Source: Fischerella muscicola PCC 7414 (GTDB lineage: Bacteria > Cyanobacteriota > Cyanobacteriia > Cyanobacteriales > Nostocaceae). Taken from it: a stretch of 64,000 nucleotides of DNA. The stretch is taken from the NCBI RefSeq assembly GCF_000317205.1, contig NZ_AJLK01000114.1:1-64000 (forward strand). Reading direction: 5' to 3'. Below are positions 21,438 to 24,429 of the stretch, in pieces. The first letter of the stretch is position 1; each line of letters begins with the position of its first letter. The notes beneath the pieces were generated by a model, which was given only the letters and a program-made list of their open reading frames with translations, did not search any database and was not told the DNA's origin. A program made the position numbers and the translations under genes.

Positions 21438-23360
21438 CTATTGAATGAGAATGATTGCCTCTTGAACCTTTGCGGAAAGAGCTTTTTGCAACCCTTGCTC
21501 AACTTTGGCAATTAGTTGCTCAAAAGCCTCTTGATTTGCTGTTAGTTGTTCTTGCAGCACTTTCTCTAACTCAGGCTTGATTTGCTTACATATATCGTCG
21601 ATTTTCTTATCATTTAAAAAACTCGGACGTAGCCAACTGGGGACATCAACATTTGTCTTGATTGCTTCTTTGACACCCTGGCGGTTTAGTTCCATGCCTG
21701 CTGCCATCACCGAAGCCCCATATACTAAGGCAATTGGCCAGGTAAAATGTCCGGTGAGGATGAGAGTAATGATGCTGGCGAGAGTACCTCCGCCAATTAC
21801 CACATTGACAATAAATGCTACTGTGTCAGCCAGGATAGCATCACCAATGCGTAACTCTGGGTTGACAAAAGTTGGATCGATGCCTTCCTCAAACCTTAAA
21901 CTACTTCTAGGTATGTGAAACTGACGACAAATCGGATCGGTTTCTGCGGCTAAGTCTGGTTGAATTTGATTATTAAACCAACTGATGCATTGATTATTAA
22001 TAATTTTTTGAGCGCGATCGCTTTTGAGCCACTGTTCTGCTCGTTCTTTCATAGATGTTTCTAAATCAACTAAAGTCCGGATTTGGTTCTTTTGCCAATC
22101 TTTGATACCTGTTCTCACAGCGCTTTCAATCAAATTATCTGCCAGTGGCTTAATTAATAAGTCGACTAACTCCGGGATCTGTCTCTCAATTAAATCTTTG
22201 AGCTTTTGTGATTCAAATAGTTTATTGACTTCTTGTTTGAAGGCAGTTGCACGCAAATCCCATCGTCCGACTCGCGCCAAACCCAGCGCAATACACCGTT
22301 CTGGTTCCGGATCGGGACGCAGGAGGGTTTCTGGTTCAGGAAAAATTTCCTGGCAAATTTGATGTGTAAACTTCATCCGAGATGCGCCGCCAGTCATAAG
22401 TAAAAGTTTCGGCACGATATTTTGTTGATCTAGCTTTTGTTTTGCCTCACTGACGGCGGCGCGAAATGCTTGCATCCAACTCTTTTGCCCGAGTTCGGGT
22501 AAGGGTTGGTTCAAAATTTCCTCCATGATCAATTTGTTGACTTGGGGAATAAAATAAATTTGTTCGTTAATCGACTCAAAACCACGAGCAAAAGATTGAG
22601 AATCGCTGTATAGTTGTTCGTTAGAAAAATAATTTTCTTTGGCTTTGCGGCAAGCAAGTTCACAACGTGCTTGGTGATGGGGATATTCCTTAAATACTTT
22701 TTCGAGTAACGCTTTTTGATCGTGTTTAGCGAGAGTACGTTCAAAAATAGCACGATCAATTAAAGATGCTCCTAAAGCATTACTACCAAAATCTACTGGA
22801 ATTTCATGTAAGCTTTTAACTAGAGTAAAATCAGTAGTTGAAGAACCAATATCAACAATTAGCACCGATGATTTTAGCTTTTCATACTCCAGCCTCCCGG
22901 CTTCCTTGGCTTGCATGAAAGCAGCCCGTGATTCTGGTACGACATTCAGGTGGGGAATACCAGCAGTTTGCAGTAGCTTTTGATATTCTTCCCGTTCGCT
23001 CACTGACCATCCAGAGGGACAACCAACGTAAAAGTAGCTAGTTGTTCCACCTTCAATTTGTTTACTTTCTTGCAAAAGACGGTAATAGGTTGCAACAAAA
23101 GTGCTGATTGTTTTTCTGTAATCTGGGTCGTGATTTGGTTTTTGCTTAAAAGAGATTTGCAGCTGAGTCACACCAGCTTGAATTAAGGCTTGTTCTCCAA
23201 CAAGATAACCAAGTTGGGGATGCCAACCAAGAGCCGTAATTTGATTTTTCTTATTATTAATTTCCAGCATCTGGGGAGGTTCGATGCTCTCCACAATAGC
23301 TTTTGTTACAGCTGTTTCACCATGCCCCAAATCAAAACCAATTGTTTCTAAAATTTCCAT
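21438..23360 (-). CDS. Hsp70-family ATPase with C-terminal membrane segments
   Basis: This 640-aa protein has an actin/Hsp70 nucleotide-binding fold: phosphate-1 GFDLGHGETA (8-17), phosphate-2 LIVDIGSSTTDF (167-178) and adenosine loop LMTGGASRMKF (321-331). It lacks a recognisable DnaK substrate-binding domain. Instead, a helical region is followed by two hydrophobic segments (about 511-537 and 541-557) and a charged coiled tail. The pattern suggests a membrane-attached chaperone or cytoskeletal-like ATPase. The upstream gene on the same strand, 154 bp away, encodes a GrpE-like membrane protein, supporting joint function. Function is unknown. Confidence 0.75.
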   Translation of the reverse strand: MEILETIGFDLGHGETAVTKAIVESIEPPQMLEINNKKNQITALGWHPQLGYLVGEQALIQAGVTQLQISFKQKPNHDPDYRKTISTFVATYYRLLQESKQIEGGTTSYFYVGCPSGWSVSEREEYQKLLQTAGIPHLNVVPESRAAFMQAKEAGRLEYEKLKSSVLIVDIGSSTTDFTLVKSLHEIPVDFGSNALGASLIDRAIFERTLAKHDQKALLEKVFKEYPHHQARCELACRKAKENYFSNEQLYSDSQSFARGFESINEQIYFIPQVNKLIMEEILNQPLPELGQKSWMQAFRAAVSEAKQKLDQQNIVPKLLLMTGGASRMKFTHQICQEIFPEPETLLRPDPEPERCIALGLARVGRWDLRATAFKQEVNKLFESQKLKDLIERQIPELVDLLIKPLADNLIESAVRTGIKDWQKNQIRTLVDLETSMKERAEQWLKSDRAQKIINNQCISWFNNQIQPDLAAETDPICRQFHIPRSSLRFEEGIDPTFVNPELRIGDAILADTVAFIVNVVIGGGTLASIITLILTGHFTWPIALVYGASVMAAGMELNRQGVKEAIKTNVDVPSWLRPSFLNDKKIDDICKQIKPELEKVLQEQLTANQEAFEQLIAKVEQGLQKALSAKVQEAIILIQ

Positions 23361-23436
23361 ATTCTTACTATCTTTTCAGCTGTTACGCTTACAATTTGCA
23401 TCGTTATTAATTATTAGGAAAAGCGTCAAACTCTCT

Positions 23437-23512
23437 CCCCATCTCCTCATTGCCCCCCAACCCTACAAAGTGGGGATCCCTAGCCCCCCATTGCCCCTAA
23501 TCCCCACCTCCC
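23437..23512. repeat. G-rich modular repeat, minus orientation
   Basis: On the minus strand it reads GGGGATTAGGGGCAATGGGG then GGGATCCCCACTTTGTAGGG, the same modules as at 15821 and 33048. It fills the gap between the Hsp70-like and GrpE-like genes. Confidence 0.8.
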
Positions 23513-23514
23513 TT

Positions 23515-24429
23515 TTATTCTCTAGCCTGGGAATACGCTGGTTCAATTACCCGACCACGTCTGAGCAAGCGATCGCCTTTCAATAAAGCAGGAGTTATGG
23601 TGACGTAATCTTTGGTGTCAGGGTCAATACTTGGCTCGAAATCAAAAAAGGCGCGATCGCTTTGGGGATTATTTGGTTGGTAAATTTGCGTACGAATTCC
23701 TTGATCCAGTAAAATCTGGGGTAAAATTTTTGCTAACTCCAGCATCATTTGGGGTCTATCAAGAAATGACGCGCCTATTAGTCTTTGCAGAAAATTTAAT
23801 AGTTCTGGCAGTTCTTCTATAGCGCGATCGTCAAAAGGTTTATTCCCTTCTTCAACTCTAGCGACTGCCAAGTCTATCGTGTTGAGAGCATCCCCCAAAT
23901 TATCTAGAAGAATTTTGCTATCAACTTTTAGGGTTGGTTGGGGTAATTCTCTTAACTCAGGCAAGTTTGAATTATTTTCCTGTTTGTTTTTGTCCAGTTG
24001 CAACACCACTTCTAGTCCGATCAACACAGAAGCTAGTAAAATAGCCATCCACGCACCAGGAGTAGTTTCAGTTAAATAAAACAACCAACCTAAAATACCT
24101 ATATAAATAAGTGCCTTGAGCAGTTTCAAAATTAACCTGTTCGGAGACAACTTTGTAATTTGGTTAGTGATTGGCTTTGCTTCTGGGAGAGTGATTTGAG
24201 AAACTTGAGGCGCAGCGAGAGTAGCAATTGATTGGCGCAGCGCATCTAAAAAAAAGGAAGCCAAACGTACTTGAGCCAAATTTAGCTCACTTATATAAAT
24301 TCTTTCCAGATGATCAATTCTGTTTTGTACCAGCTTCACTACTTGTTCAACACTGGTTGACTCATCAATCTCTGTCTGGAGTTGGTTACGTTCTTCACTA
24401 AAAAGTGTAAATAGTTTTTTCATTACCAA
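23515..24429 (-). CDS. GrpE-like membrane protein, partner of the Hsp70-like gene
   Basis: This 304-aa protein begins with a helical region (10-70), followed by two hydrophobic segments (about 99-119 and 125-145), another helical region, and a C-terminal stretch DYVTITPALLKGDRLLRRGRVIEP. That stretch resembles the GrpE beta domain, where a final G(x)RLLRPAxV pattern contacts the Hsp70 ATPase. Hence it may be a membrane-anchored nucleotide-exchange factor for the adjacent Hsp70-like ATPase. The resemblance is short and was judged by eye. It may start at M3. Confidence 0.55.
   Translation of the reverse strand: MVMKKLFTLFSEERNQLQTEIDESTSVEQVVKLVQNRIDHLERIYISELNLAQVRLASFFLDALRQSIATLAAPQVSQITLPEAKPITNQITKLSPNRLILKLLKALIYIGILGWLFYLTETTPGAWMAILLASVLIGLEVVLQLDKNKQENNSNLPELRELPQPTLKVDSKILLDNLGDALNTIDLAVARVEEGNKPFDDRAIEELPELLNFLQRLIGASFLDRPQMMLELAKILPQILLDQGIRTQIYQPNNPQSDRAFFDFEPSIDPDTKDYVTITPALLKGDRLLRRGRVIEPAYSQARE

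What the first reader, a model, noticed from the sequence alone, without database searches (positions are those of the whole stretch)
21438..24429. Membrane Hsp70-like ATPase with membrane GrpE-like partner
The ATPase keeps the three nucleotide-binding motifs but has two membrane segments instead of a DnaK substrate domain. Its upstream neighbour has its own two membrane segments and a GrpE-like C-terminal pattern (GDRLLRRGRVIEP). This suggests a membrane-bound chaperone pair outside the DnaK/GrpE system.
Basis: partly seen in the sequence, partly recalled or inferred. Interest (0 to 1): 0.65.

Follow-up and report, generated by a model that had tools for sequence, protein, structure and literature searches.

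The report
Membrane Hsp70-like ATPase with faithful partner
Many cyanobacteria carry a two-gene unit encoding a membrane-anchored protein built on the ATP-driven engine of the heat-shock chaperone Hsp70 (but lacking its client-gripping part) and a second membrane protein that almost always travels with it; the job of the pair is unknown, and rarer relatives of the engine are linked to a DNA-pump-like ATPase, a protease or an immune-type domain.

Summary
Window 21438-23360 (-) encodes a 640-aa protein whose residues 5-362 form an Hsp70-type nucleotide-binding domain (hhalign to DnaK 97%, E 1.3e-10; fold match to Hsp70/Hsp110, Z about 18). It has no substrate-binding domain; helices and two hydrophobic (membrane) segments follow instead. 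Upstream, 23515-24423 (-) encodes a 302-aa protein with its own two segments. The pairing is real: 77 of 80 relatives of the ATPase have the partner directly upstream although tested neighbours differ, and in 386 genomes strong hits of both fall in the same 14. The GrpE reading is not demonstrated: none of 13 partner-family members tested hits Pfam GrpE, and profile comparison with canonical GrpE gives 0.6-1.1%, where four other divergent cyanobacterial GrpE groups give 90-99%. Yet the C-terminal GDRLLRRGRVIEP stretch is its best match to GrpE, in register and above all 200 shuffles. Some divergent relatives put the ATPase beside a HerA-type ATPase and a metallopeptidase; one fuses it to a TIR domain. 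I read it as a membrane-tethered Hsp70-type nucleotide switch with a dedicated, possibly GrpE-like, regulator; client unknown. New variant of a known kind.

The parts
21438..23360 (-). Hsp70-type membrane ATPase gene (640 aa, P0001), stop codon included
23298..23339 (-). phosphate-1 motif, residues 8-21 GFDLGHGETAVTKA
   Evidence: G8 F9 D10 L11 G12 G14 E15 invariant in the 16-sequence alignment A4
22818..22859 (-). phosphate-2 motif, residues 168-181 IVDIGSSTTDFTLV
   Evidence: D170 G172 S173 S174 T175 D177 T179 invariant in A4
22374..22397 (-). adenosine motif, residues 322-329 MTGGASRM
   Evidence: T323 G324 invariant, A326 S327 M329 nearly so in A4
21723..21848 (-). two hydrophobic segments (residues 505-523 and 528-546), inferred membrane hairpin in place of a substrate-binding domain
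   Evidence: hydropathy scan; similarity to DnaK ends at residue 362
23361..23514 (-). 154-bp gap between the two genes; 14 bp is the commonest spacing in relatives (37 of 78 loci)
23515..24423 (-). membrane partner gene (302 aa, P0002), stop codon included
24001..24135 (-). two hydrophobic segments of the partner (residues 97-115 and 123-141)
23539..23595 (-). GrpE-like C-terminal stretch, residues 277-295 TPALLKGDRLLRRGRVIEP

Best explanation
The two genes make one membrane-bound unit. P0001 is a nucleotide switch with an Hsp70-type ATPase engine facing the cytosol; the part that in DnaK grips peptides is replaced by a helical domain with a membrane hairpin, so ATP binding and hydrolysis would drive a shape change at the membrane rather than a peptide-binding cycle. 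P0002, a second hairpin protein with helices and a small C-terminal domain, is its dedicated regulator, most likely acting on the nucleotide state or tethering and triggering the ATPase, possibly as a very diverged GrpE-type exchange factor. Shown by computation: Hsp70-type ATPase fold, lack of the substrate domain, hydrophobic segments, near-obligate pairing in the close family, purifying selection. Inferred: ATP hydrolysis, membrane insertion, cytosolic orientation of both main domains, physical interaction, nucleotide exchange by the partner, and what the switch controls.
For: hhalign to the genome's own DnaKs 96.95%, E 1.3e-10, residues 5-362 only. A profile of the family finds Hsp70 ATPase domains first among solved structures (5.3e-11; all 60 rows shown of 105). 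Foldseek and VIA-align give Hsp70/Hsp110 domains on top (Z 18.4, rmsd 4.2, 297 residues). D10, E143, D170 and D177 and the adjacent F71-K72 are invariant in A4; I equate them with the Hsp70 catalytic D10, E175, D199, D206 and K71, an equivalence from recall and inspection (hhalign itself places K72 two columns off the DnaK lysine). Partner directly upstream in 77 of 80 loci, same strand, spacing -4 to 408 bp, and further upstream in one more. In 386 genomes of the phylum draw, strong hits of the two families fall in the same 14 genomes, side by side in all 14, with one gene between them in one. Of five window neighbours tested, LepA, the S8 peptidase, ORF 26882 and ORF 15970 were found in none of the 80 flanks and the histidine kinase in one (E 1e-20, over 40% identity), so the pair moves as a unit. 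Pairing persists in divergent relatives: 12 of 19 loci read, with ATPase identity to P0001 of 27, 34 and 39% in the three such loci measured in A4.
Against: None of 13 partner members tested hits Pfam GrpE and profile comparison with canonical GrpE is 0.6-1.1%, so nucleotide exchange is not evidenced. 7 of 19 divergent ATPase loci lack the partner beside them (L154, L225, L228, L230-L233), some of them broken or cut genes, so the ATPase domain may work without it. One close relative (L004) has no partner in the 2.4 kb upstream that are held. The ATPase model is of middling quality (pLDDT 69; residues 1-72 under 50). No biochemical data.
Confidence: 0.55

Rival explanations
1. The partner is a true but extremely diverged GrpE, so the pair is a membrane DnaK/GrpE system that handles membrane proteins: a real chaperone pair.
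For: Best local match of the partner family to GrpE is its C-terminal stretch, in register with the GrpE C terminus; 0 of 200 column permutations reach the observed score in either of two comparisons; it outscores all 14 other family alignments (P 0.002-0.003 against 0.03-0.055 at best). Against divergent GrpEs the match extends over 73-75 columns including the preceding helix. Another GrpE-like protein with two hydrophobic segments beside an Hsp70-like gene exists in cyanobacteria (L163; Pfam GrpE 46 bits).
Against: Absolute hhalign probability stays at 0.6-11% while four divergent cyanobacterial GrpE groups of two or more members reach 90-99% with canonical GrpE; one single sequence (L164) reaches only 15%. 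11 of the 14 decoy alignments were shallower than the partner's, so that null is lenient, and column shuffling destroys local order, so that one is lenient too. The GDRLLRR letters are not kept in the wider family. No substrate-binding domain in the ATPase.
Confidence: 0.25
2. The pair is the core of a conflict or signalling module in which the Hsp70-type switch senses damage at the membrane and releases an effector; the two-gene form in the window uses effectors encoded elsewhere or acts by itself on the membrane.
For: Among 19 divergent loci, 8 carry a HerA/DUF87-type ATPase beside the Hsp70-type ATPase, 5 also a metallopeptidase-like gene, one fuses it to a TIR domain (L230: TIR_2 1.9e-20 plus HSP70 1e-5) and one has a TIR gene as next neighbour (L154, PADLOC hits PDC-S66 8.8e-71 and ThsB 2.4e-45). 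Work from the Aravind group describes HSP70 plus GrpE genes, some with a further HSP70 domain lacking the peptide-binding domain, in GTPase-centred conflict systems of other phyla (PMC7159879, passage read). One copy sits on a conjugative plasmid between two integrase genes.
Against: The HerA homologue is absent from the window genome and from 8 of 9 other genomes tested with the two-gene form; the ninth has only a partial match of 34% identity. PADLOC finds nothing for P0001 or P0002. Viral contigs held no relative. I recognised no effector gene beside the window pair.
Confidence: 0.25
3. It is an actin-like (MreB/FtsA/ParM-type) membrane scaffold ATPase with a membrane anchor partner, as MreB-RodZ, and not an Hsp70 relative in mechanism.
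For: Weak Pfam hits to MreB and ParM, below cut-off, for P0001, and above cut-off to MreB (1.8e-10, better than its HSP70 hit of 3.1e-7) for the tandem relative L150.
Against: Profile search of solved structures and fold search rank Hsp70/Hsp110 domains first; the tandem relative also passes the Pfam HSP70 cut-off.
Confidence: 0.12
4. Adjacency reflects shared ancestry of a block of genome rather than function.
For: Most of the 80 relatives bear names of Nostocales genera (placing of genera partly recalled).
Against: Five tested window neighbours are not kept beside it while the pair stays together in distant lineages and on a plasmid.
Confidence: 0.03

Closest known systems
DnaK/Hsp70 (Pfam PF00012)
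   Same: ATPase domain with the phosphate-1, phosphate-2 and adenosine motifs; residues 5-362 align to DnaK 3-371
   Different: no peptide-binding domain; helical region and hydrophobic hairpin instead; only just at the Pfam cut-off (21.1 against 20.6 bits; not listed by hmmscan)
Hsp110/Sse1 and Ssz1 (atypical Hsp70s)
   Same: top fold matches (Z 17.8-18.4, tied with DnaK); Hsp70-type domains that, as recalled, act as regulators rather than as plain peptide-binding chaperones
   Different: not membrane proteins (recalled); eukaryotic
GrpE (Pfam PF01025) and divergent cyanobacterial GrpE-like proteins
   Same: C-terminal stretch with similar letters in the same register; neighbour of an Hsp70-type gene
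   Different: no Pfam GrpE match in 13 members tested; profile probability 0.6-1.1% with canonical GrpE; hydrophobic hairpin and an extra N-terminal helical part
HSP70 + GrpE in GAP1-N2 GTPase-centric conflict systems (Kaur et al. 2020, PMC7159879; passages only)
   Same: Hsp70 and GrpE genes together, some with an Hsp70 domain lacking the peptide-binding domain
   Different: described there predominantly for actinobacteria and firmicutes with GTPases and FNIII-repeat proteins; no such GTPase seen beside the window pair
HerA/DUF87 ATPases (FtsK-HerA superfamily)
   Same: a DUF87-type ATPase lies beside the ATPase gene in 8 of 19 divergent loci
   Different: no such gene found in the window genome

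Membership tests
Hsp70 superfamily, nucleotide-binding domain | sequence and fold similarity over the whole ATPase domain | tested here: met
   Pfam HSP70 just over cut-off, not listed
Hsp70 superfamily, nucleotide-binding domain | three nucleotide-binding motifs | tested here: met
Hsp70 chaperone (DnaK type) | peptide-binding (SBD) domain after the ATPase domain | tested here: not met
   alignment to full-length DnaK ends at residue 362; the rest is modelled mainly as helices and has two hydrophobic segments
Hsp70 chaperone (DnaK type) | ATP hydrolysis and chaperone activity | not testable with these tools
   needs biochemistry
GrpE | Pfam PF01025 or significant profile similarity | tested here: not met
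   11 members at E 10 and two more at E 1: no GrpE hit; 0.6% with canonical GrpE while four divergent GrpE groups of two or more members reach 90-99% and one single sequence 15%
GrpE | C-terminal beta domain | tested here: inconclusive
   model pLDDT 28-48 there; best local sequence match is in register
GrpE | stimulates nucleotide release from its Hsp70 | not testable with these tools
   needs biochemistry
MreB/ParM actin-like filament proteins | family-level match and filament formation | tested here: inconclusive
   Pfam hits below cut-off for P0001, above for the relative L150; polymerisation not testable; not among the 50 VIA rows shown, which does not exclude it
Known anti-phage defence systems (PADLOC) | a PADLOC family hit | tested here: not met
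   0 families for P0001 and P0002 at E 0.1; the partner in the divergent locus L151 has a LeoB hit of 1.1e-5 over its hairpin region

The most novel reading that the evidence does not exclude
An unrecognised cyanobacterial membrane switch system: an Hsp70-type ATPase, stripped of its chaperone domain and anchored in the membrane, works with a dedicated membrane exchange factor as the sensor-and-threshold core of a conflict or export module, whose outputs in different lineages are a HerA-type pump with a metallopeptidase or a TIR effector.
Probability: 0.2. Interest if true: 0.75.

Novelty: new variant of a known kind. Interest (0 to 1): 0.5.

Why it matters
Hsp70 is usually thought of as a soluble peptide-binding chaperone. 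Here its engine appears to have been reused as a membrane-tethered switch with its own loyal partner across many Nostocales and related cyanobacteria, and in relatives it is plugged into a pump-type ATPase, a protease or a TIR domain. If the partner does exchange nucleotide it would be a GrpE-like factor beyond the reach of sequence search and a test of how far that function can drift; if not, it is a new regulator of an Hsp70-type motor.

Tried and rejected
A chance or spurious ORF was rejected: dN/dS 0.07-0.17 in eight comparisons and long conserved homologues. A heat-shock CIRCE operator upstream of the partner gene (motif recalled): the best match in 81 upstream stretches has 5 mismatches of 18, so no sign of it. 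A HerA partner in trans in the window genome: none found. Viral copies: 44 pattern matches in the viral collection, none encoding a relative. GrpE among solved structures with the partner profile: one hit only, a designed protein at E 0.67. Foldseek of the partner model: nothing at E 0.001 or better, but the model is too poor to count. MreB families were not among the 50 rows shown by VIA-align, which excludes nothing. The first GrpE profile test used canonical GrpE only and gave 0.8%. The 12-member Pfam scan shows 25 of 39 families only, so I repeated ten members singly. Rows changed in the GrpE set: L158 (wrong frame picked) was dropped, L168 and L169 were replaced by the right ORF, and L157 was cut to its last 200 residues. 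The control used 18 of the 21 divergent GrpE-like proteins; L157, L168 and L169 were left out of its groups. Two divergent ATPase places that lie in pieces (G832, G749) were not read. Literature: 9 searches listed nothing that I recognised as describing this pair; I saw passages of two papers and only listings of the others, and the library is open-access papers only.
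Full report
What is there. Two genes on the minus strand of a cyanobacterial genome of 6.9 Mb in 270 contigs. The closest ATPase relatives are in Westiellopsis, Pelatocladus and Fischerella, 91-92% identical. The upstream gene, 23515-24423, encodes a 302-residue protein (P0002); the downstream gene, 21438-23360, a 640-residue protein (P0001); 154 bases lie between them. Each gives one match in the genome at E 0.001. The same genome has five strong DnaK-type genes and a canonical GrpE beside one of them, so this pair is additional.

The ATPase. Pfam and NCBIfam give only sub-threshold hits (MreB, ParM, a PRK11678 chaperone model, BeeR and others). In the genome scan the Pfam HSP70 model scores 21.1 bits, just over its cut-off of 20.6, though hmmscan did not list it. 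Profile methods are clear: hhalign of 23 family members against the genome's five DnaKs gives 96.95% and E 1.3e-10 over 329 columns, P0001 residues 5-362 against DnaK 3-371; a profile of 16 members finds Hsc70 first among solved structures at 5.3e-11, and the 60 rows shown of 105 are all Hsp70-family chains. The AlphaFold model (24 sequences, pLDDT 69, first 72 residues under 50) matches Hsp70/Hsp110 domains best (Foldseek E 1e-7; VIA-align Z 18.4, rmsd 4.2, 297 residues). After residue 362 nothing aligns with DnaK: the model shows mainly helices, and a hydropathy scan shows two segments, 505-523 and 528-546. The likely catalytic residues D10, E143, D170 and D177 and the adjacent F71-K72 are invariant in 16 sequences, the other 15 being 24-88% identical to P0001; their equation with Hsp70 catalytic residues is mine, from recall, and hhalign places K72 two columns away from the DnaK lysine. 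I infer an active ATPase.

The partner. P0002 has N-terminal helices (10-residue pLDDT means 72-91), two hydrophobic segments at 97-141, then helices and a C-terminal part that the model does not resolve. Tests of the GrpE reading. Against: no GrpE hit in Pfam for P0002 or ten other members at E 10, nor for two more, L150 and L151, at E 1; profile comparison with canonical GrpE gives 0.6-1.1%. As positive control, four groups of divergent cyanobacterial GrpE-like proteins (9, 3, 3 and 2 members) reach 96, 99, 98 and 90% with the same canonical profile; one single sequence reaches 15%. With GrpE profiles widened by divergent members the P-values are 0.003-0.012 (probability 4-11%) and, against divergent GrpEs alone, the match runs over 73-75 columns from the last helix to the end. 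Of 14 other gene families from the loci (the ATPase family among them), the best P-values were 0.055, 0.031 and 0.048 in three comparisons, against 0.002-0.003 for the partner family; but 11 of the 14 decoy alignments were shallower than the partner's. None of 200 column-shuffled alignments reached the observed score in either of two comparisons; such shuffles also destroy local order, so this is a lenient null. In the wider family the conserved core is roughly F-x-F-E-P-S ... PA-x-x-K ... G-x-V-x-x-P rather than GDRLLRR. Verdict: a resemblance above my nulls but below the standard for homology.

The pairing. A scan of one genome per species returned 91 relatives of P0001, of which the best 80 were kept. 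P0002 homologues lie on 78 of these 80 loci: 77 directly upstream on the same strand at -4 to 408 bp (14 bp in 37), and one (L003) 2,776 bp upstream behind two inserted genes. In one of the 77 (L007) the partner ORF is interrupted. Of the two misses, L065 has only 217 bases upstream on its contig, and L004 holds 2.4 kb upstream with other genes. Five genes of the window neighbourhood were searched in the 80 flanks (up to 6 kb each side; E 1e-20, over 40% identity): four were found in none, one in a single locus. In 386 genomes of the phylum draw 15 pass E 0.001 with the ATPase profile and 15 with the partner profile; 14 of each are strong and they are the same 14 genomes, next to each other in all 14, with one gene between in G527; the fifteenth in each is a weak match in a different genome (G018, G398). 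The two profiles differed in breadth (A1 and A3). A single-sequence search of 291 genomes of the class gave 7: three strong, one divergent (G264) and three weak. In 388 genomes of the order draw 101 pass E 0.001; 24 of these are weak (E above 1e-6, probably ordinary Hsp70s), leaving 77 (my count from the table); the partner was not searched in that draw. One genome of the window's own genus lacks the gene (G828). So the two-gene form is patchy but rarely separated.

Divergent relatives. I read 19 divergent ATPase loci in 17 genomes (5); L221 and L222 are near-duplicates. Partner adjacent: 12 of 19 (L150, L151, L152, L153, L220-L224, L226, L227, L229). HerA/DUF87-type ATPase: 8 of 19 (L150, L151, L153, L223, L224, L225, L226, L232; some cut short). 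Metallopeptidase-like gene: 5 of 19 (L150, L151, L223, L224, L232); it passes the cut-off of Pfam Peptidase_Mx1 in L151 and has no Pfam hit at E 0.01 in L224. TIR: fused to the ATPase in L230 (TIR_2 1.9e-20, HSP70 1e-5) and the neighbouring gene in L154. L150 carries two ATPase domains in one protein, and L227 a stronger-scoring Hsp70 domain in front of the family's own. L153, L154 and L231 show no hydrophobic segment in the ATPase; among the partners L220 shows none at the same threshold. In a tree of 30 ATPases the two-gene form of the window is one clade (100/100); HerA-linked forms do not form one clade, and several deep forks are open with long branches, so whether HerA was lost or gained cannot be said. 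The HerA gene was sought in 20 genomes: no match in the window genome and in 8 of 9 others with the two-gene form (the ninth, G409, has a partial, 34% match), none in G504 (divergent form) or in the six genomes without the pair, and full matches in the three expected ones.

Known work. Kaur et al. 2020 (PMC7159879; passages only) report HSP70 and GrpE genes, some with an HSP70 domain lacking the peptide-binding part, in GTPase-centred conflict systems predominantly of actinobacteria and firmicutes. In the passages I saw, the 2021 follow-up (PMC8195603) adds nothing on this pair. Nine searches of the open-access library listed no paper that I recognised as describing the cyanobacterial membrane pair. 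In the one annotated record I saw, both genes are 'hypothetical protein'.

Reading. The best-supported mechanism is a membrane-tethered Hsp70-type nucleotide switch with a dedicated membrane regulator. The ATPase fold, the hydrophobic segments and the pairing rest on computation; hydrolysis, membrane insertion, interaction, nucleotide exchange and purpose are inferred. The association of relatives with HerA, a peptidase and TIR makes a conflict or export role worth testing, but nothing ties it to the two-gene form in the window. I call it a new variant of a known kind (atypical Hsp70 with a partner).

Noticed in passing
L150, L151, L223, L224 (unnamed cyanobacterial genomes): A conserved block: membrane partner, Hsp70-type ATPase, HerA/DUF87-type ATPase of about 900 aa, and a zinc-metallopeptidase-like gene, plus in three of them (L150, L151, L223) a small protein with hydrophobic segments; L151 has a DUF697-like protein in between.
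   Followed up: partly
L230 5165-7591 (-); L154 7080-7760: TIR domain fused to the Hsp70-type ATPase in L230, and a TIR (ThsB-like) gene next to it in L154.
   Followed up: partly
L150 5771-9007 (-); L227 7440-10808 (-): Proteins with two Hsp70-type ATPase domains in tandem; in L227 the first scores far better with Pfam HSP70 than the family's own domain.
   Followed up: no
L007/L241 (Calothrix brevissima NIES-22 plasmid2, AP018209.1 9838-12743): A copy of the pair on a plasmid typed as conjugative, between two phage-integrase genes; the partner ORF is interrupted, giving a 268-aa annotated protein that lacks the usual C-terminal end.
   Followed up: partly
G000 contigs C196 (L102 2605-5184) and C100 (L103 3741-4403): Two further GrpE-like proteins in the window genome: one beside a gene that by eye holds an Hsp70-like start and repeats, one that by eye is a helix-turn-helix protein with a GrpE-like end.
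   Followed up: partly
L163 2504-5147: A Pfam-recognised GrpE-like protein with two hydrophobic N-terminal segments (28-46, 60-78) next to an Hsp70-like gene, a possible parallel case of a membrane GrpE.
   Followed up: partly
window 21438-23360: Pfam HSP70 scores 21.1 bits (over cut-off) in the genome scan but is not listed by hmmscan at E 10 for the same protein; perhaps a filter effect, worth knowing when counting Hsp70s.
   Followed up: no
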